Origin: Rhizobium sp. N324 | Lineage (GTDB): Bacteria; Pseudomonadota; Alphaproteobacteria; Rhizobiales; Rhizobiaceae | Reading direction: 5' to 3' | Assembly: GCF_001664485.1 (NCBI RefSeq) | Contig: NZ_CP013633.1 | Span: 310,001-374,000 of the forward strand | Length of the DNA stretch: 64,000 nucleotides | Shown: positions 4,967 through 45,240 of the stretch, piece by piece | Layout: each line of letters starts with the position of its first letter | Numbering within the stretch: position 1 is the stretch's first letter | The notes under the pieces: generated by a model | What the model was told of the DNA's origin: nothing | Database searches by the model: none | The model's input: the letters and a program-made list of their open reading frames with translations, nothing else | Program-made: the position numbers and the translations under genes

Positions 4967-6076
4967 ATGTTGAGCACGAATCGAGAGAGCCCTCCTCCAG
5001 CCGCTGGCCGTGCCGCCATGAAGAAAGAGCTGCCCGATCAGTTTAAGGACCATCGGCACGTTTGGGTCTTCATCGAGCTGGAGCGCGATCAGGTGCATCC
5101 CGTCTCCTTCGAGCTGCTCGGCGAAGGCCGCAAGCTCGCCGACAAGCTGGGCGTCCAGCTTGCCGGCGTCGTTCTCGGACCACCGGGAGAGGCCACGTGG
5201 TTTGCCATCGCCGAGGCTTTTGCTTATGGCGCCGACCTGGCCTACATCGTCGAGGCCCCACTGCTCGCCGACTACCGAAATGAGCCTTTCACCAAAGCAT
5301 TGACGGATCTGGTTACTAACTACAAACCGGAAATCCTTCTTTTAGGGGCAACGACGCTCGGGCGCGACCTTGCCGGTTCCGTGGCGACGACCTTGTTGAC
5401 AGGGCTCACGGCGGATTGCACCGAACTTGATGTGGATGCGGACGGCTCGCTTGCGGCGACCCGGCCGACTTTCGGCGGCTCCTTGCTTTGCACGATCTAC
5501 ACGCTCAACTGCCGGCCGCAGATGGCAACGGTCCGGCCGAGGGTCATGGCCATGCCTCCGCGCGGGAATAATAAGATCGGACGCGTCATTCAACACAAAG
5601 TGTCGATGATCGAGGAAGAGATCGTCACTAAGGTCCTCGGTTTCTTGTCCGATGGCCAGTCGGCGACGGCGAATCTCGCCTATGCGGACGTCGTGGTTGC
5701 TGGAGGCCTCGGTCTCGGCGCGGTGGAGAACGTGAAGCTTATGAAGAAACTCGCGCGGACGATCGGGGCCGATTATGGCTGTTCGCGCCCCCTCGTCCAA
5801 AAGGGCTGGATGCCTGCTGATCGGCAGATCGGCCAAACTGGCAAAACTATCCGGCCGAAGCTTTACATAGCAGCCGGCATTTCCGGCGCCATCCAGCATC
5901 GCGTTGGCGTCGAGGGAGCTGATCTTATTTTAGCCATTAACACCGATCCTAACGCGCCGATTTTTGATTTCGCCCACCTCGGCGTCGTCACCGATGCGAT
6001 CCGTTTACTGCCGTCATTAACGGAACTCTTCACCCATCGACTGTCGCCGCACAGTCGCGATAAGCTTGCAAACTGA
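4967..6076 (+). CDS. fixB: FixB, electron-transfer flavoprotein alpha-like subunit
   Basis: The 369-residue ETF-alpha homologue has an N-terminal alpha/beta domain (roughly residues 30-215). The C-terminal FAD-binding domain carries [19 protein letters not shown] and [20 protein letters not shown]. It partners FixA in the electron-bifurcating complex. The start at 4967 follows AAGGAG. An N-terminal extension of about 17 residues precedes [11 protein letters not shown], so an internal start is possible. The spacing to fixC is 9 bases, fitting a single operon. Confidence 0.96.
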
Positions 6077-6085
6077 GGGCGCCCC

Positions 6086-7393
6086 ATGACTGAGGAAAAC
6101 TTCGACGCCATAGTTATCGGGGCCGGCATGGCCGGAAACGCAGCTGCGTACACGATGTCGAACCGCGGCATGAAGGTGCTGCAGTTGGAGCGTGGCGAGT
6201 ATCCGGGCTCCAAGAATGTGCAGGGCGCCATCATGTACGCGGACATGCTGGAGAAAATCCTGCCGGATTTCCGGGATGATGCGCCTCTGGAGCGGCACTT
6301 AGTCGAGCAGCGCTTCTGGATGATGGACGACTCGTCCCACATCGGTATGCAATACCGGTCGGACGACTTCAACGAGTCGAGACACAATCGCTACACGGTC
6401 ATTCGCGCCCAATTCGACAAATGGTTTTCACGCAAGGTGCGCGAGGCCGGAGCGACGCTTCTATGCGAGACGACCGTGACGGAACTCGTTCGTGATCCAA
6501 AGGGCAAGGTGATTGGCGTTCGCACCGACCGCGCCGGCGACGTGATTCTTGCTGACGTGGTCGTTCTCGCAGAGGGCGTCAATGGGCTGCTCGGCACGCG
6601 TGCTGGATTGCGTGACACGCCGAAACCGGAAACTGTCGCGCTCGCCGTCAAGGAAATGCATTTCCTGGCCGAAGAGGTAATTGACCAGCGGTTCGGCCTC
6701 AAGGCCAATGAAGGCTGCGTCATCGAGGCAGTTGGCACGATCTCTCGCAACATGGCCGGGCTTGCCTTCCTCTACACCAACAAAGAATCGATCTCGATCG
6801 GCATTGGCTGCCTTGTCTCCGAATTCGCGGCAACAATGGAAAGTCCTTATGATCTGCTCGAAAAATTCAAAAGCCATCCGTCGGTAAAGCCGCTGATCGC
6901 AGGAGCGGAAGTCAAGGAATATGCGGCGCATCTCATTCCAGAAGGTGGTTACAAGGCAATTCCGCAGCTTTTTGGTGACGGCTGGGTCGTCGTCGGCGAC
7001 GCGGCACAACTTAATAATGCGGTGCACCGCGAGGGGTCCAACCTCGCCATGACGTCGGGGCGCATCGCCGGCGAAGCAATCGTCCAGATCAAGAATCGCA
7101 AAAAGCCGATGGTCAAGGAGAACCTCTCCCTTTACAAGTCGATGCTTGAAAAGTCGTTCGTTATCAAAGACTTGCGGAAATACAAGGACATGCCTGCCCT
7201 GCTGCACACCAATTCCCGCAATTTCTTCACGACTTATCCAAGGTTGCTGTCGCAGGCCGCACAGAACTTTGTGCGAGTCGATGGCACCCCGAAGATCGAC
7301 AAGGAACGGGCGACCACGGACACCTTCATCAAGGCACGCTCCCGCTGGGGGCTGTTTGGTGACGCGGTTCGCTTGGCGCGCGCGTGGCGATAA
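6086..7393 (+). CDS. fixC: FixC, FAD-dependent ETF:quinone oxidoreductase-like protein
   Basis: The 435-residue flavoprotein has an N-terminal FAD-binding motif ([19 protein letters not shown]) and a second FAD site at [21 protein letters not shown]. It belongs to the geranylgeranyl reductase/ETF-QO group. It receives electrons from FixAB and, with FixX, passes them to quinone in the membrane. The length is normal for FixC. It is followed after 12 bases by fixX. Confidence 0.96.
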
Positions 7394-7859: not shown

Positions 7860-9614
7860 ATGACCCACATGCCCGCCCGACCGGTCGATGGAGCGGAACC
7901 CCTATCTGCGCTACCTGCTGGACCTATGCGCCAAGCAGGCACGCAGCGCAGCGGAATCTACGAGATATCAAAGGTACTGACTGCCCCCGCCCGGCTAGAG
8001 ATTACGCTTGCCAACGTCGTGAACGTCCTCTCTTCCTTTCTGCAGATTCGATGCGGAGCAATCGTTGTTCTAGACGCTGAAGGTCAGCCCGACATTGCCG
8101 CAACTGGCGACATCCCCCCATCCTCTCAATCAGCCGCTCGAGGCGTTATACCTAAGGCCGTAATCGACCATATCGCGACGACCGGTATGCCCTTAATCGT
8201 AAAGGATGTCAGCAAGTCCGAATTATTTCAGGCTGAGCCGCAACCGCCTTGGAGCAGCGGCACCGTCCCAATTTCTTTTATTGGCGTTCCGGTAAAAGCC
8301 GATAATAAAATACTTGGCACAATATCGATCGATCGCGTCAGGAACGACGCCGCCCCCTTCCCCGCCGACGAGGACGTTCGCTTTCTGACCATGGTCGCCA
8401 ATCTGGTCAGTCGGACGATCAGGCTTCATCGTTTCCTGAACCTGGAGGGTCGGCGACCTATCGGCGAACAAGAGAGACCGGAGAAGCCGATCATCGCGCA
8501 AAGGGGCGCGCCAGGCCGACATCCACCCGTCAAAATCGACGGGATTATCGGGGATAGCCCGGCTCTCCAGCAGGTGGTTGAAACCGTCTCGGTGGTGGCG
8601 AGGACGAATTCCACCGTGCTTCTGCGGGGCGAAAGCGGCACCGGCAAGGAATTTTTTGCACAGGCGATCCATGAACTTTCCCCTCGTAAAAACAAGCCGT
8701 TCGTCAAATTGAACTGCGCCGCGCTGCCCGAAGGCGTCCTGGAATCGGAGCTGTTTGGGCATGAAAAAGGGGCTTTCACCGGGGCCATCGCGCAGCGCGC
8801 CGGACGCTTCGAACTGGCAAATGGCGGAACGCTTCTGCTTGACGAGATTGGCGAGATTTCGCCCGCCTTTCAAGCCAAACTGCTGCGCGTCCTGCAGGAA
8901 GGCGAACTGGAGAGGGTGGGCGGAACCAAGACGCTTGCGGTCGACGTCCGGCTCATATGCGCCACGAATAAGAACCTCGAGATGGCTGTTGCAAACGCCG
9001 AATTCAGGGCCGACCTGTATTACCGCATCAGCGTAGTTCCAATTGTCCTGCCGCCGCTTCGAGAGCGACCCGGCGATATTCCACGCCTTGCGAACGCTCT
9101 TCTTGACCGATTCAACAAGGAGAACCAACGCGAGCTGACGTTTTCGTCGTCGGCGATCGAGGTGATGTCGCAATGCTATTTCCCAGGTAACGTCCGGGAA
9201 CTCGAAAACTGCGTGCGAAGGACTGCCACCCTTGCGCGTTCAAGCTCGATCGTTTCGTCTGATTTTGCCTGCAAGAACAGCCAGTGCCTTTCGTCGCTCC
9301 TCTGGAAAACCGACGGGTCGCCCGGCGGCATCACCGTCGATGGGCATGCCCGGAGCAATGTGATGCCGACTTCATCGCCGCGCTCGGGCGGGAGCATCGG
9401 TGCGTCGGACGAGGTATCTTCCGTCAAGGCTTGTGATCCGCACGGTTCCGGTTGTCCCGCAATGGAGTCGCGCCTCACGCAACGGGACCGGTTGATCGAG
9501 GCGATGGAAAAGGCCGGGTGGGTTCAGGCCAAAGCGGCTCGTATTCTCGGCCTTACGCCTCGTCAGGTCGGCTATGCTCTACGCCAGCATCGCATCGAGG
9601 TGAAAAAGCTTTAA
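7860..9614 (+). CDS. nifA: NifA, sigma-54-dependent transcriptional activator of nif/fix genes
   Basis: The 584-residue enhancer-binding protein has an N-terminal GAF domain (about residues 45-185). The central AAA+ domain (about 220-455) has Walker A GESGTGKE, the sigma-54 contact loop GAFTGA and Walker B GGTLLLDEIGEI. The C-terminal Fis-type helix-turn-helix is AAKILGLTPRQVGYALRQH. Just after the central domain lies ACKNSQC, the CX4C pair that makes alpha-proteobacterial NifA directly oxygen-sensitive. It binds the TGT-N10-ACA sites seen upstream of iscN, fixA, nifB and nifQ. I see no -24/-12 element directly upstream. It could be read from fixABCX or from a vegetative promoter in 7706-7859. 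Confidence 0.97.
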   Translation: MTHMPARPVDGAEPLSALPAGPMRQAGTQRSGIYEISKVLTAPARLEITLANVVNVLSSFLQIRCGAIVVLDAEGQPDIAATGDIPPSSQSAARGVIPKAVIDHIATTGMPLIVKDVSKSELFQAEPQPPWSSGTVPISFIGVPVKADNKILGTISIDRVRNDAAPFPADEDVRFLTMVANLVSRTIRLHRFLNLEGRRPIGEQERPEKPIIAQRGAPGRHPPVKIDGIIGDSPALQQVVETVSVVARTNSTVLLRGESGTGKEFFAQAIHELSPRKNKPFVKLNCAALPEGVLESELFGHEKGAFTGAIAQRAGRFELANGGTLLLDEIGEISPAFQAKLLRVLQEGELERVGGTKTLAVDVRLICATNKNLEMAVANAEFRADLYYRISVVPIVLPPLRERPGDIPRLANALLDRFNKENQRELTFSSSAIEVMSQCYFPGNVRELENCVRRTATLARSSSIVSSDFACKNSQCLSSLLWKTDGSPGGITVDGHARSNVMPTSSPRSGGSIGASDEVSSVKACDPHGSGCPAMESRLTQRDRLIEAMEKAGWVQAKAARILGLTPRQVGYALRQHRIEVKKL

Positions 9615-9688: not shown

Positions 9689-9704
9689 TGTCGGAAGCTT
9701 GACA
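9689..9704 (+). promoter_or_regulatory. NifA upstream activator sequence for nifB
   Basis: TGT (9689-9691)-N10-ACA (9702-9704). The inner bases are nearly the same as in the fixA site (CGG(G)AAGCTT core). It lies 70 bases upstream of the -24 element at 9775. Confidence 0.82.
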
Positions 9705-9774
9705 AGTCTGTGTCCGAACCCGGTCGGAATCGGGCAATAAATGCAAATTCTTAAAGCAAATCCCGTCCTTGGGA

Positions 9775-9790
9775 TGGCATGGCTTTTGCG
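9775..9790 (+). promoter_or_regulatory. Sigma-54 promoter of nifB
   Basis: TGGCATGGCTTTTGC: GG and GC are correctly spaced with a T-rich -12 side, a strong nif promoter. It ends 38 bases before nifB and should drive nifB-fdxN-nifZ-nifT and probably the SIR2-like gene. Confidence 0.9.
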
Positions 9791-9827: not shown

Positions 9828-11306
9828 ATGTCCGCACCGATGATTTCGCTTGAAAGTGCGACCAGCACGACATCCTTGGATCAATTGCTGGCGACCGCGA
9901 AACCGAGTGGCTGCACATCCTCGTCATGTGGCGTGTCCACAAAACCGGCCGACGTGGACCAGGCTATCTGGGCGAAGATCAAAAACCACCCCTGCTATTC
10001 AGAAGAGGCTCACCATTATTTCGCGCGCATGCATGTCGCGGTCGCACCAGCCTGCAATATCCAGTGCAACTATTGCAATCGTAAATATGACTGCGCCAAC
10101 GAAAGCCGCCCTGGGGTCGTCTCGGAAAAGTTGACGCCAGACCAGGCGCTGCGCAAGGTCATTGCCGTCGCCAACGAAGTGCCGCAGCTTTCCGTGCTGG
10201 GTGTCGCCGGACCGGGCGATGCCTGTTACGACTGGAAGAAGACAAAGGAAACGTTCGAACGAGTTGCGGGGGAGATCGACGACATCAAGCTGTGCATCTC
10301 CACCAACGGGCTTGCGCTGCCGGATCACGTCGCCGAACTTGTCGACATGAATGTCGATCACGTGACAATTACGATCAACATGGTTGACCCTGAAATCGGC
10401 GCAAAGATCTATCCCTGGATCTTTTACCGCAACCGTCGTTACAGCGGCATCGAAGCTGCGAGAATTCTGCACGAGCGGCAAATGGTGGGCCTGGAGATGC
10501 TGACCGCGTGCGGCATCATCACCAAAGTCAATTCGGTGATGATTCCTGGTGTCAACGACGAACACCTGGTCGAGGTAAATAAATGGGTCAAGGAGCGGGG
10601 GGCGTTCCTGCACAACGTCATGCCGCTTATTTCCGATCCGGCCCATGGCACCTACTACGGCTTGACCGGACAGCGCGGCCCGCGGGCGCTCGAATTGAAG
10701 GCGCTCCAGGATCGTCTCGAAGGCGGCGCAAAGCTAATGCGCCATTGCCGGCAGTGTAGGGCCGATGCCGTCGGCCTGCTTGGGGATGATCGGGGCCAGG
10801 AGTTCGCACTCGACCAGCTTCCCGGAGAGATCACCTATGACGCCCGTAAGCGCGAGGCCTATCGGGAAGTGATCGCCCGCGAACGCGGCGATCACGCGAC
10901 CGCCAAGAGCGAGGCAATCGAGACAGTCAAAGCAGCCGGCGATGGGTCCCTCCACGTCGCGGTCGCGACAAAGGGTGGCGGTCGCATCAACGAGCACTTC
11001 GGCCATGCGAAGGAGTTCCAAGTATACGAAGCTTCGTCGAGAGGCATCACCTACGTCGGGCATCGCAAGATCGAACAGTATTGCCTCGGAGGCAGGGGCG
11101 AGGAAGCCACCCTCGACGGCATCATAACTGCGCTGGTCGGTATTGACGTCGTGCTATGCGCCAAGATCGGGGAGTGCCCTAAGACTAAGCTCATGGAGGC
11201 CGGGGTTCGGGCAACGGATGCTTATTGCTATGACTACATCGAGACCGCCATCGGCACCCTCTACGCCGACAAGTTTGGCGTCGAACCACAAGCGGCGACG
11301 GCGTGA
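9828..11306 (+). CDS. nifB: NifB, FeMo-cofactor (NifB-co) radical SAM synthase
   Basis: The 492-residue protein builds the 8Fe-9S-C precursor of FeMo-co. The radical SAM domain carries ACNIQCNYCNRKYDC (CX3CX2C), followed by the glycine-rich SVLGVAGPGDA. The C-terminal NifX-like domain (about residue 360 on) begins HVAVATKGGGRINEHFGHAK. The frame is open from 9741, but that lies before the -12 element. ATG 9828 after ACGGAG matches the usual N-terminus. It is followed by fdxN after 34 bases. Confidence 0.97.
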   Translation: MSAPMISLESATSTTSLDQLLATAKPSGCTSSSCGVSTKPADVDQAIWAKIKNHPCYSEEAHHYFARMHVAVAPACNIQCNYCNRKYDCANESRPGVVSEKLTPDQALRKVIAVANEVPQLSVLGVAGPGDACYDWKKTKETFERVAGEIDDIKLCISTNGLALPDHVAELVDMNVDHVTITINMVDPEIGAKIYPWIFYRNRRYSGIEAARILHERQMVGLEMLTACGIITKVNSVMIPGVNDEHLVEVNKWVKERGAFLHNVMPLISDPAHGTYYGLTGQRGPRALELKALQDRLEGGAKLMRHCRQCRADAVGLLGDDRGQEFALDQLPGEITYDARKREAYREVIARERGDHATAKSEAIETVKAAGDGSLHVAVATKGGGRINEHFGHAKEFQVYEASSRGITYVGHRKIEQYCLGGRGEEATLDGIITALVGIDVVLCAKIGECPKTKLMEAGVRATDAYCYDYIETAIGTLYADKFGVEPQAATA

Positions 11307-11340: not shown

Positions 11341-11547
11341 ATGGCCTTCAGGATCATAGCGTCCCAATGCACCCAGTGCGGTGCCTGCGAGTTCGAATGC
11401 CCCTCCGGTGCGATCAGGTTCAAAGGTGAGATCTACGTTATCGATCCGGAAAAATGCACCGAATGCAAGGGTACCTTCGAAACGCAGCAATGCGCGGAGG
11501 TTTGCCCCGTGCCGAAGACCTGCGTCCCCGCCGCACCTGCGATTTGA
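11341..11547 (+). CDS. fdxN: FdxN, 2[4Fe-4S] ferredoxin
   Basis: The 68-residue bacterial-type ferredoxin has two cluster motifs, [12 protein letters not shown] and [18 protein letters not shown]. The longer insertion in the second is typical of nif-linked ferredoxins. It donates electrons for nitrogenase or for NifB-dependent cofactor steps. It lies between nifB and nifZ in the nifB operon. Confidence 0.96.
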
Positions 11548-11611: not shown

Positions 11612-11929
11612 ATGGGCCTTGGACGTGAACAGGAGGTCGAAATCCACAGGCCTCCACGATTTACACCCGGCGAGCGGGTGCGGGCCAGACTTCACGTAAA
11701 GAATGACGGCACCTATGCTGGCAAAAAAATTGGCGAAAATTTGGTGCGGAAGGGCGACGAAGGCTATGTGCGCGACATCGGCACCTTTCTCCAGCAGTTT
11801 TACATCTATGCCGTCGAATGGGTCGAACGTGGCACTATCGTCGGCATGCGTGCCCGTGAACTGACGAGTCTAGACAACGCCGCTGCTTGCGGCGCTGCTG
11901 AAATCGCGGGGCCCCCAACGAAGGAATAG
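11612..11929 (+). CDS. nifZ: NifZ, nitrogenase P-cluster maturation protein
   Basis: The 105-residue product carries the NifZ-family segment FTPGERVRARLHVKNDGTY followed by KKIGENLVRKGDEGYVRDIG. NifZ acts in maturation of the second P-cluster of the MoFe protein. Two ATGs (11606 and 11612) share the ribosome site AAGGAGG. The second has the better spacing of 7 bases, so 11612 is chosen. The stop is 4 bases from the nifT start. Confidence 0.94.
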   Translation: MGLGREQEVEIHRPPRFTPGERVRARLHVKNDGTYAGKKIGENLVRKGDEGYVRDIGTFLQQFYIYAVEWVERGTIVGMRARELTSLDNAAACGAAEIAGPPTKE

Positions 11930-11933
11930 CGAC

Positions 11934-12146
11934 ATGAAGATAATGATTCGGAGAACGAGCGCCGGCTTGTCGGCTTACGTACCAAAGAAAGATCTCGAAG
12001 AGCCGATCGTAGATGTCGAGGCTGATGACATGTGGGGCGGCACGATCACTCTCAGGAACGGCTGGAGACTCGTCTTGCCCAAGCTATCGCGGGATACGCC
12101 TCTGCCGATCACCGTCCACGCAAGGAAGATTCCTGACGAGGACTGA
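11934..12146 (+). CDS. nifT: NifT/FixU family protein
   Basis: The 70-residue protein starts MKIMIRRTSAGLSAYVPKKD. It contains WGGTITLRNGWRLVLPKL, the core of the small NifT/FixU family that accompanies nif clusters and has no firm biochemical role. In rhizobia it is often called fixU. It follows nifZ by 4 bases, implying translational coupling. Confidence 0.94.
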   Translation: MKIMIRRTSAGLSAYVPKKDLEEPIVDVEADDMWGGTITLRNGWRLVLPKLSRDTPLPITVHARKIPDED

Positions 12147-12176: not shown

Positions 12177-13115
12177 ATGAATAAAATTTTGACCTCGGAC
12201 CGTCTCCTGATCATTCGCAACGGTGACGCCGAAAAAAGACTTAGGCTGCTTCAGGAAGCGCTCGCTGCGGATCGGATCGTTCCCTATCTCGGTCCGGATC
12301 TCCTTCGGCTGCAATCCACGGAACCACCTGTACCGGACACCCCGGAAGCCGTCTCCGCGGCACTCAACGAACGCACACCTGCCCCTTCCAGGATACGCAG
12401 CAATATGTGGTCAGTCGCGCAGTTTATTGAACAGCGACGGCATCGCCGGACGCTTCAGGCCTGGATGGCAGAAATATTTGGAGCACCCGTGGCGCCGACC
12501 GCCCTCCACGACTGGCTCGCAACGCTGCCGCTCTCCCTTATCGTCGACGGTTGGTACGACGGGACAATGCGTGCGGCTTTCGCGAAGACCGGTCGAACGG
12601 ATGTCGTCGAGATTCAGGGCGTCACGCGTGCAAACGGCGGCGGCGACATTTGGACAAAAACTTACGATCTGGCCGGGAGAGACGTCGAATGCGTCTCAGC
12701 GCCAAAGACGGTCCTCTATGCGCCGTACGGCAGTGTTATACCAGCTTCGAACTTTCTGGTGTCCGATTCCGATTACGTGGAAGTCCTAACCGAAATCGAT
12801 ATCCAGACGCCAATACCTGGAATGGTGAAAGAACGGCGTATAGATCGCGGTTTTCTTTTCATTGGCTGCCGCTTCAACGATCAGATGCTCCGGATCTACG
12901 CTCGACAGATCATCAAGCGCTCTCACGGCCCCCACTTTGCAGTACTTGATGCGGAAGGCCTTACCAAAAACGAGCGCCGTTTCCTTGCAGCAAGCGGAAT
13001 CACGGTGGTCGACCTGCCGATCGGCGAAGCCGCGGCTCTGCTTGTACCATTTGGTAGCAAGGCGGATGGTGACCATGGCCGCACGGCTTCCGCTTCGAAT
13101 CTCTGTAGCGGCTAG
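12177..13115 (+). CDS. SIR2-like protein encoded at the end of the nifB operon
   Basis: The 312-residue protein begins 30 bases after nifT behind a GAGAGGTAAGAG leader. It resembles SIR2-like (SIR2_2-type) Rossmann-fold NAD-binding domains. IVPYLGPDLLRL sits where these proteins have a GAG-x-S type loop. IVDGWYDGTM resembles the N-Y-D strand. FLFIGCRFNDQMLRIYARQI resembles the C-terminal FIG-x-x-x-D element. Where sirtuins have the catalytic His (K-x-HG), I read VEIQGVTRANG, with Gln instead of His. NAD hydrolysis or deacylation is therefore doubtful. A related fragment lies at 45018-45240. A role in nitrogen fixation is suggested only by position. Confidence 0.75.
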   Translation: MNKILTSDRLLIIRNGDAEKRLRLLQEALAADRIVPYLGPDLLRLQSTEPPVPDTPEAVSAALNERTPAPSRIRSNMWSVAQFIEQRRHRRTLQAWMAEIFGAPVAPTALHDWLATLPLSLIVDGWYDGTMRAAFAKTGRTDVVEIQGVTRANGGGDIWTKTYDLAGRDVECVSAPKTVLYAPYGSVIPASNFLVSDSDYVEVLTEIDIQTPIPGMVKERRIDRGFLFIGCRFNDQMLRIYARQIIKRSHGPHFAVLDAEGLTKNERRFLAASGITVVDLPIGEAAALLVPFGSKADGDHGRTASASNLCSG

Positions 13116-13556: not shown

Positions 13557-14660
13557 CTAGCTCTGCGTCTTCATACTTCCAGAAATGATGTCCCTGGCGG
13601 CTGAAAGGAACGCGTCCATTTGGGTTCTGGTGCCGATGCTGACGCGGATAAAATTTTCCAAACCGGCATCGGGAAAGACGGCTACAAGTATGTTCTGCCT
13701 ATCCAAAGACGCTTGCCACCATTTGCCATCTCGTCCGGGTGGCACCCGAGCTAGCAAAAAGTTTGTGTGGGAGGGGATGACAGAAAAGCCCAATTGAGAC
13801 AAGGCAGTGGTCGTTCTGTGTCTTTCATGTTTAATATATCTGTGGTTCTCGTCGTAGTCGGCGCGGTGCGAAAGGATACTAATGCCCACCGCATGGCCGA
13901 TCACGTTCATGTTAAAGACATTTTGCAGGTTGCGTAGCCTCCCAATAAGTTCAGGATGACCAAAGCCGAAACCGACGCGAATTCCCGCGGCTGCAAAGCC
14001 TTTCGAAAGTGTTCTCAATACTAGAAGGTTTGGATGACGATCAACAAGGCGCAGGGCATCATCGGGTGCAAAGTCGACATACGCTTCATCCACCACTATC
14101 AACTGGTCCGATTGCGCGACGAGGCGGTCGATTTCAGCCACCGGAACGAATGTTCCCGTTGGATTGTTCGGATTGGCCAGCAGTATGAATTTTGCATCTT
14201 TTGCTGGACCAAGAAGCAGCTGCTCGATTGGCAGAGAATAAGACTCGCCCCATTCGATTTCGAGAAATCTGGCACCCTGCAACTTGGCCAGTTTGCGGTT
14301 AAAGGAAAAACCTGGCGATATCATCGCAACGCTATCTCCCGGGTCGAGGAATGCTCTGTAGATGAGCCCAAGCAGCTCCGACGAGCCGTTCCCGGCGACC
14401 ACCTGATCCTGGGAGAGGCCATACGCGCTGGCGGCTGCGTCGCGCAAGCTCAGATTGTCATCTTCGGGATACAGATAATGCCGTTCGAGGGCCGCCAGCG
14501 CACTTTGCATCACCATCATCGGCAACGGAAACGGATTCTCATTCGTGTTTAGTTTAACGCAGTTCGCATCTCGCCCCGGTTGATTGGAGGGTAGCGCATT
14601 TAGCTGTCTCGCCATCGGCGAAAGAGCCGAAAGCACGGCTTGCAGCTTTGCATCAGCCAT
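13557..14660 (-). CDS. hisC: Histidinol-phosphate aminotransferase
   Basis: The 367-residue fold-type I PLP enzyme has conserved motifs TNENPFPLP, YPEDDNLSLRDA, NPNNPTGTF and the PLP lysine in LRTLSKGFAAAGIRVGF. It converts imidazole-acetol phosphate to histidinol phosphate with glutamate. Related enzymes accept aromatic amino acids, so a role in indole-pyruvate formation is possible. It stands alone with no other his gene near, opposite in strand to the nif block, so it is probably an extra plasmid copy. Upstream (14661-14818) I see no clear nif or nod element. Confidence 0.92.
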   Translation of the reverse strand: MADAKLQAVLSALSPMARQLNALPSNQPGRDANCVKLNTNENPFPLPMMVMQSALAALERHYLYPEDDNLSLRDAAASAYGLSQDQVVAGNGSSELLGLIYRAFLDPGDSVAMISPGFSFNRKLAKLQGARFLEIEWGESYSLPIEQLLLGPAKDAKFILLANPNNPTGTFVPVAEIDRLVAQSDQLIVVDEAYVDFAPDDALRLVDRHPNLLVLRTLSKGFAAAGIRVGFGFGHPELIGRLRNLQNVFNMNVIGHAVGISILSHRADYDENHRYIKHERHRTTTALSQLGFSVIPSHTNFLLARVPPGRDGKWWQASLDRQNILVAVFPDAGLENFIRVSIGTRTQMDAFLSAARDIISGSMKTQS

Positions 14661-21304: not shown

Positions 21305-21320
21305 TGTCGCCATTGAAACA
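21305..21320 (+). promoter_or_regulatory. NifA-type upstream activator sequence (orphan)
   Basis: TGT (21305-21307)-N10-ACA (21318-21320) is an exact match. It sits only 20 bases before the -24 element, much closer than the 67-70 bases at fixA and nifB. It may be inactive, or use an unusual geometry. Confidence 0.55.
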
Positions 21321-21339
21321 TTCACTAACAATGATCTGG

Positions 21340-21355
21340 TGGCACACCAATTGCT
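21340..21355 (+). promoter_or_regulatory. Sigma-54 (-24/-12) promoter, orphan, upstream of GGPP synthase
   Basis: TGGCACACCAATTGCT matches the consensus fully at GG and GC, with a TTGC -12 box. The nearest plus-strand gene is the prenyltransferase at 21901, 546 bases away. If active it would tie GGPP supply to nitrogen fixation. Confidence 0.65.
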
Positions 21356-45017: not shown

Positions 45018-45240
45018 CCGGTCCCTAAAGTGGTGAAGGAGCCGCGCACCAACCCAGGCTTCTCCTTCGTCGGCTGGCGCTTCAAAGACCAGATGCTGCG
45101 CACTTACGCCGGGGAAAATGTTGAAGCGCTTGGCCCACGTTTCGCGGCACTCGCAGCGGCGGTGCTGACCAAGACCGAACGCAGTTTCCTTGCAGCTAGC
45201 GCCGCCATTAGGCTCATTGATGTGCCGAGACGAACATGCG
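45018..45240 (+). pseudogene. Fragment of a second SIR2-like gene
   Basis: VVKEPRTNPGFSFVGWRFKD and QMLRTYAG, followed by LTKTERSFLAASAAIRLIDV, align with residues about 214-285 of the SIR2-like protein at 12177-13115 (MVKERRIDRGFLFIGCRFND...). About half the positions are identical. Both N-terminal and C-terminal parts are missing, and the frame ends in unrelated residues. It lies 160 bases before a nod box. Confidence 0.82.

What the first reader, a model, noticed from the sequence alone, without database searches (positions are those of the whole stretch)
12177..13115. SIR2-like protein coupled to the nifB-fdxN-nifZ-nifT operon
A 312-residue protein with SIR2-like architecture directly follows nifT by 30 bases in an operon headed by a strong NifA/sigma-54 promoter. 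The position of the catalytic sirtuin His appears to hold Gln (EIQGVTRANG), and the usual GAG-x-S loop reads YLGPD. It may have been turned into an NAD(H)- or ADP-ribose-binding protein without hydrolysis. It might sense redox or energy state for nitrogenase, or be a remodelled defence-type SIR2. No established role is known to me.
Basis: partly seen in the sequence, partly recalled or inferred. Interest (0 to 1): 0.72.

Follow-up and report, generated by a model that had tools for sequence, protein, structure and literature searches.

The report
Enzyme-dead sirtuin-like nitrogen-fixation companion
A gene at the end of a bacterial nitrogen-fixation operon makes a protein with the shape of a sirtuin enzyme but without its usual catalytic residues; it is known from other nitrogen-fixing bacteria and may help the nitrogen-fixing enzyme to work where oxygen is present, though that is not yet shown.

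The parts
9689..9704 (+). NifA-type upstream activator site TGT-N10-ACA
   Evidence: exact match; 7.4 expected by chance in the window, so position, not count, is the argument
9775..9789 (+). sigma-54 -24/-12 promoter TGGCAT-N5-TTGC
   Evidence: exact match, 0.35 expected in the whole window; 39 bp before the nifB ATG; the same strict pattern is found near nifB in 50 of 80 near loci
9828..11306 (+). nifB (the open frame begins at 9741, but the promoter lies inside that stretch)
   Evidence: TIGR01290 E 7.6e-211; 492 aa from ATG 9828
11341..11547 (+). 4Fe-4S ferredoxin (fdxN)
   Evidence: ORF; ferredoxin families below their cut-offs; '4Fe-4S binding protein' in R. etli CFN42
11612..11929 (+). 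nifZ
   Evidence: named NifZ in the same operon of R. etli CFN42; no NCBIfam hit
11934..12146 (+). nifT (fixU)
   Evidence: TIGR02934 E 6.1e-30
12177..13115 (+). nif-associated SIR2-like protein (pseudo-sirtuin)
12291..12299 (+). G39-P40-D41, the place of the SIR2 GAG loop
   Evidence: profile alignment
12552..12560 (+). W126-Y127-D128, the place of the catalytic N-Y-D
   Evidence: alignment; first residue W in 121 of 121 and 120 of 120 sequences of two search lists, N in 120 of 120 of the distant branch
12615..12617 (+).
12726..12728 (+). Y184, the column of the catalytic His
   Evidence: alignment; H in 72 and Y in 8 of 80 loci
45018..45227 (+). relic fragment of the same gene (residues 212-281, 53.5% identity)
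   Evidence: tblastn

Best explanation
The gene encodes a member of a nitrogen-fixation-linked family of SIR2-fold proteins that lacks the Asn-His catalytic pair. Shown here by computation: operon position, fold, absence of the pair in every sequence examined, occurrence only in nifB-bearing genomes of the two samples, and purifying selection. Inferred: it is made with nitrogenase assembly proteins under NifA and acts as a non-hydrolytic binding or scaffold protein (altered nucleotide pocket, SIR2 shape kept) that keeps nitrogenase or its maturation working when oxygen or electron flow is unfavourable. In the distant branch it is coupled to hemerythrin or Fe-superoxide dismutase, and in one nearer relative to the FeSII shield protein. 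In nodules, where the plant limits free oxygen, it is dispensable or nearly so.
For: Fold. Active site: ThsA N112A and H152A abolished NAD cleavage and neither mutant bound NAD; the DSR2 pocket is N133, Y134, D135, H171; the window has W126, Y127, D128, Y184, and 0 of 361 sequences has both Asn and His. Nif linkage: 17 of 17 hits lie among the 43 nifB genomes of 398; 6 of 6 among 9 of 270 in a partly overlapping class sample; 80 of 80 near loci keep the operon order. Selection: dN/dS 0.13-0.21 in six comparisons with dS 0.8-1.4. Oxygen link: hemerythrin or Fe-SOD within 400 bp downstream in 6 of 9 distant-branch loci; FeSII 21 bp downstream in L111. Genetics in a likely relative: pnfA non-polar mutant 23% nitrogenase activity at 0.5% O2, like wild type without O2, nifH mRNA unchanged. 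Rcc03262 protein found in wild type, not found without NifA.
Against: The M. loti msi351::lacZ mutant was fully effective on Lotus. The pnfA mutant also lost activity under anaerobic nitrate respiration, so the phenotype is not simply oxygen. PnfA's own sequence was not in hand; kinship rests on layout, size and the label 'SIR2 family'. In the window no oxygen-handling gene adjoins the gene. FeSII was not found in any of the 5 genomes of the window's own family. Cytochrome oxidase was found in 48 of 48 nifB genomes, one weakly, so no aerobe-anaerobe contrast could be made. The oxygen neighbours were noticed after the fact, without a background rate. His184 is kept in 119 of 121 nearest sequences, which a wholly dead site need not do. 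26 of 43 nifB genomes lack a hit.
Confidence: 0.45

Rival explanations
1. A nitrogenase maturation or assembly factor acting with NifB, NifZ and NifT, with no special oxygen role.
For: Conserved place at the end of the nifB-fdxN-nifZ-nifT operon; NifA-dependent protein in R. capsulatus; nifT next to the gene in 4 and within about 2.1 kb in 3 of the 7 intermediate loci L108-L114.
Against: The fully effective M. loti mutant; distant-branch genes sit beside nifH or sod/hemerythrin rather than nifB-nifT; the pnfA mutant was like wild type without oxygen.
Confidence: 0.22
2. A sensor or reader of NAD(H) or ADP-ribose, tied to the DraT/DraG ADP-ribosylation switch of the Fe protein.
For: SIR2 fold; DraT (PF07357) directly beside the gene in L177, one gene away in L178, about 3.3 kb away in L115, and within the same 20 kb stretch in L111 and L112.
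Against: No DraT found in the window's own genome or in 4 other family-bearing genomes (the 14 control genomes were silent too, but the search does find DraT in G716). P. stutzeri A1501 is reported to lack DraT/DraG yet pnfA has a phenotype. GAG loop, Asn and the usual GYS serine (R232 here) are all changed.
Confidence: 0.2
3. A protein deacetylase acting on nitrogenase or NifA, as proposed for Zymomonas ZMO1821 (PMC8600466).
For: SIR2 annotation; nitrogenase and NifA are reported acetylated in Zymomonas.
Against: Catalytic Asn is Trp and His is Tyr here; 0 of 361 sequences have both. The Zymomonas sequence itself was not examined.
Confidence: 0.06
4. A remodelled phage-defence NADase carried with the symbiotic plasmid.
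For: Nearest solved folds are defence proteins; weak PADLOC ThsA match, E 3.1e-5.
Against: Hits only in nifB genomes in the samples; nif promoter; catalytic pair absent.
Confidence: 0.04
5. A vestigial passenger of the operon.
For: Fully effective M. loti mutant; the same paper says the gene is missing from NGR234, S. meliloti 1021, two Bradyrhizobium strains and R. leguminosarum; relic copies on this plasmid.
Against: dN/dS 0.13-0.21, like nifT; 14 invariant columns in 97 sequences.
Confidence: 0.03

Closest known systems
msi351 of Mesorhizobium loti R7A (PMC3538637, passages seen)
   Same: Same operon nifB-fdxN-nifZ-fixU-msi351, same NifA/RpoN control, called prokaryotic sirtuin-like
   Different: Its sequence was not compared by name; the Mesorhizobium loci read here keep His184; mutant fully effective on Lotus; active site not discussed in the passages seen
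Rcc03262 of Rhodobacter capsulatus (PMC6925177, passages seen)
   Same: Last gene of nifB1-rcc03265-nifZT-rcc03262; protein not found without NifA
   Different: Sequence not compared here
PnfA (PST1325) of Pseudomonas stutzeri A1501 (PMC2820453, sections 8 and 9 read)
   Same: 31.7 kDa, homologues reported only in diazotrophs, labelled SIR2 family in PMC11332353; the divergent-from-nifH layout matches branch B loci L175 and L176
   Different: Its authors compared it with UspA and ETF-alpha, and the text has no 'SIR2'; sequence not in hand
SIR2 domains of ThsA, DSR2 and KomC
   Different: ThsA and DSR2 hydrolyse NAD with Asn and His; here Trp and Tyr; no further domain
ZMO1821 of Zymomonas mobilis (PMC8600466 and PMC8594446, passages seen)
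   Same: SIR2-like gene in a nif cluster, protein raised under N2 fixation
   Different: Proposed there as a deacetylase from its annotation; sequence not compared here

Membership tests
SIR2_2 (PF13289) | score above the curated Pfam cut-off | tested here: met
   67.1 bits against 24.5
SIR2 fold | SIR2 fold like solved members | tested here: met
active SIR2 NADase / sirtuin deacylase | catalytic Asn and His (N112/H152 of ThsA) | tested here: not met
   W126 and Y184 by profile alignment; 0 of 361 have both
active SIR2 NADase / sirtuin deacylase | NAD+ binding and cleavage | not testable with these tools
   needs purified protein
Thoeris ThsA | C-terminal SLOG-like domain | tested here: not met
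   312 aa, SIR2_2 the only Pfam match over its cut-off
nif regulon | NifA/sigma-54 operon with nif genes | tested here: met
   sequence sites and order only; NifA dependence itself shown in other species
PnfA family | sequence homology to PST1325 | tested here: inconclusive
   branch B aligns with branch A (hhalign probability 99.7) and has the pnfA layout, but PST1325 itself was not obtained
KomC / DSR2 defence systems | defence partner genes | not tested
   no partner search was run

The most novel reading that the evidence does not exclude
A whole family of enzyme-dead sirtuin-fold proteins, split between nifT-linked and nifH-linked branches, is an unrecognised oxygen-protection or oxygen-recovery part of proteobacterial nitrogenase. 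It works as an oligomeric scaffold beside FeSII, hemerythrin or superoxide dismutase and is dispensable only where a plant buffers oxygen.
Probability: 0.28. Interest if true: 0.78.

Novelty: new variant of a known kind. Interest (0 to 1): 0.52.

Why it matters
This gene travels with nif in many Proteobacteria and is annotated as a deacylase or SIR2 protein. If it is a pseudoenzyme, the acetylation model that was built on that label (PMC8600466) loses its enzyme, and a testable oxygen or redox role takes its place. A protein that raises nitrogenase activity under oxygen would also be wanted in engineered nitrogen fixation.

Tried and rejected
Q147 as catalytic residue: rejected by profile alignment. 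Aerobe test by cytochrome oxidase: 48 of 48 nifB genomes positive, one weakly, so no contrast. FeSII co-occurrence: 11 of 19 family-bearing against 4 of 29 other nifB genomes, Fisher p 0.003; the genomes are not independent, all 5 of the window's own family lack FeSII, and for G428, G494 and G528 'no family member' rests on the A1 profile alone, so it is a hint only. Single-sequence PDB search: no hit; the profile found KomC, E 2.5e-6. Tree of 60 rows: the 47 nif rows are one side of a branch (99/97), but the 13 outgroup rows have long branches and were picked by an Asn-Tyr-Asp-like motif, so no count of Asn in them is claimed. hhalign with the three-sequence outgroup was weak for A1 (probability 36) and A3 (79, and misregistered); A2 gave 98, and A1 and A2 agree on the columns used. 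PF13289 matches occur in 36 of 48 nifB genomes, the nif ones included, so other SIR2_2 proteins live beside this family. The nifB row was out of frame and is replaced. At most 4 to 8 first-look candidates per genome were scored, so distant members may be missed. DraT absence in 5 genomes has a positive control only in G716. The gamma-class sample (5 of 115) was not searched for nifB; the stretches L119 (19 kb) and L178 (13 kb) show no nif gene by tblastn, though G068 has nifB on the same contig and L178 has DraT. Papers opened and not used: PMC7860042, PMC11227200 and PMC6053447 (passages). The Foldseek pdb search never ran, as the machine was busy.

Full report
1. What is there. The ORF at 12177-13115 (+) is 312 codons long and begins 30 bp after the nifT stop. 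Upstream lie nifB, a 4Fe-4S ferredoxin, nifZ and nifT. The same order is annotated on the R. etli CFN42 symbiotic plasmid p42d, where this gene is RHE_RS30545, 'SIR2 family protein'. A TGT-N10-ACA site at 9689 and a TGGCAT-N5-TTGC site at 9775 stand before nifB; the latter lies inside the open frame that begins at 9741, so nifB more likely starts at 9828. The next annotated gene in p42d is an opposing hisC, as is the ORF at 13557-14660 here. The window is position 310001-374000 of contig C4 (447 kb) of its genome.

3. Active site. In ThsA, N112A and H152A abolished NAD cleavage and neither mutant bound NAD; the authors note that H152A also changed oligomerisation (PMC7272460, passages). The DSR2 paper lists the pocket as N133, Y134, D135 and H171, matching N112, Y113, D114 and H152 of ThsA (PMC11263360, passages). 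Aligned with three SIR2_2 proteins of related genomes (L142, L143, L145), of which L143 reads TTNYD ... KFHGDF ... LTETDY, the window reads VDGWYD ... APYGSV ... VSDSDY; by my own count the distance from the His column to the final Asp-Tyr is the same, 15 residues. The pocket here is therefore W126, Y127, D128 and Y184. The Gln of EIQG lies opposite an ordinary strand. The columns were then counted in 361 sequences: the window and the best 120 of each of three searches (which found 4662, 4343 and 1314 proteins). First list (121 with the window): Trp with His in 119, with Tyr in 2. Azospirillum-like list (120): Trp with Ser 54, Leu 33, or others. Distant branch B (120): Asn with Met 117, Leu 2, Thr 1. 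None has both catalytic residues. The Tyr is a local change: 8 of 80 loci, L001-L008, all Rhizobium with 98-100% identical proteins; 72 have His. That His stays in the nearest list although Asn is gone is unexplained. P183 is constant and D124 and R232 are nearly so where the three ordinary SIR2_2 proteins differ, so the pocket has perhaps been rebuilt rather than left to decay.

4. Nif linkage. The family profile hit 17 of 398 phylum genomes; all 17 are among the 43 with NifB over its cut-off, none among the other 355. A profile of the distant branch alone hit 16 of the same 398, all within those 17. In a class sample (270 genomes, partly the same) it hit 6, all among 9 with NifB. Not every nif genome has it: 26 of 43 and 3 of 9 lack a hit at this sensitivity. 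All 80 near loci have nifB-fdxN-nifZ-nifT-SIR2 in order (80 kept of 125 confirmed; many are close kin). In seven more distant loci nifT is next to the gene in 4 and within about 2.1 kb in 3. A distant-branch protein (Haliea) searched against 72,556 plasmids found 71 records, 54 Rhizobium, 7 Sinorhizobium, 7 Mesorhizobium and one each of Methylococcus, Paraburkholderia and Bradyrhizobium; of the 20 listed, the features are called SIR2 family protein in 19 and hypothetical in 1. The two branches align with hhalign probability 99.7 over 262 columns. dN/dS is 0.13-0.21 against six Sinorhizobium, Mesorhizobium and other Rhizobium loci, near nifT (0.14-0.21) and a little above nifB (0.11-0.14); against the closer L009 and L010 it is 0.32 on a dS of only 0.12.

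5. Neighbours of relatives. Nine distant-branch loci were read (L115-L119, L175-L178). On the same strand within 400 bp downstream lies hemerythrin in L115, L119, L175 and L177 (in L177 a small ORF may lie between) and Fe-superoxide dismutase in L117 and L118 (also after the hemerythrin in L119): 6 of 9; L116, L176 and L178 lack this. In L175 and L176 the gene is divergent from nifH without another recognised gene between, and in L177 DraT lies between. In L111 (nearer branch) FeSII, matching its solved structures at E about 1e-38, follows 21 bp downstream. L112 and L113 have another kind of 2Fe-2S ferredoxin beside the gene. FeSII forms an oxygen-shield filament with nitrogenase according to PMC12998174 (passages). 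No background rate for such neighbours was measured.

6. Genetics in print. P. stutzeri pnfA (PST1325), NifA-sigma-54 dependent and divergent from nifHDK: non-polar mutant 23% activity at 0.5% oxygen, nifH mRNA unchanged, complemented (data not shown there), like wild type without oxygen, but defective with nitrate as acceptor (PMC2820453, sections 8 and 9). A later table labels PST_1325 'SIR2 family protein' (PMC11332353, passage). The pnfA authors listed a second subfamily at 20% identity and their text has no 'SIR2'. M. loti msi351, orthologous by operon place: fully effective mutant (PMC3538637, passages); acetylene reduction is not tabulated for it in the passages seen. R. capsulatus Rcc03262: protein not found without NifA (PMC6925177, passages). 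Zymomonas ZMO1821: raised under N2 fixation and proposed as a deacetylase (PMC8600466, passages). Rhodovulum: SIR2-like protein after nifT in a figure legend (PMC9412634, passage). Ten paper searches were made; in their listings and the passages opened I saw none that treats the active site of these proteins or joins the two branches. The library lacks most subscription papers, and most listed papers were not opened.

7. Reading. The fold, the missing catalytic pair and the nif linkage are shown by computation. The oxygen role is inferred from neighbours of relatives and from one mutant in a likely relative. The lack of a symbiotic defect in M. loti counts against a general need, but is what an oxygen-linked factor could show inside a nodule. 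That last step is argument, not data.

Noticed in passing
window 45018-45227; L120 (C4:255001-275000) 6032-6226 and 8793-9402: Relic fragments of the SIR2 gene (53.5% and 69% protein identity) and of the nifB region (74% DNA identity) elsewhere on the same contig, which suggests an old second copy of the operon.
   Followed up: partly
L001-L008 against L009-L080: His184 is Tyr in 8 Rhizobium loci and His in the other 72.
   Followed up: partly
L111 9500-9883 (-): FeSII (Shethna protein II) gene directly behind the SIR2 gene in a nifB-fdxN-nifZ-nifT cluster.
   Followed up: partly
L115, L177, L178: DraT gene beside or near the distant-branch SIR2 gene.
   Followed up: partly
window 21305-21354: A second NifA-type site and sigma-54-type site, 19 bp apart; the downstream gene was not studied.
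   Followed up: no
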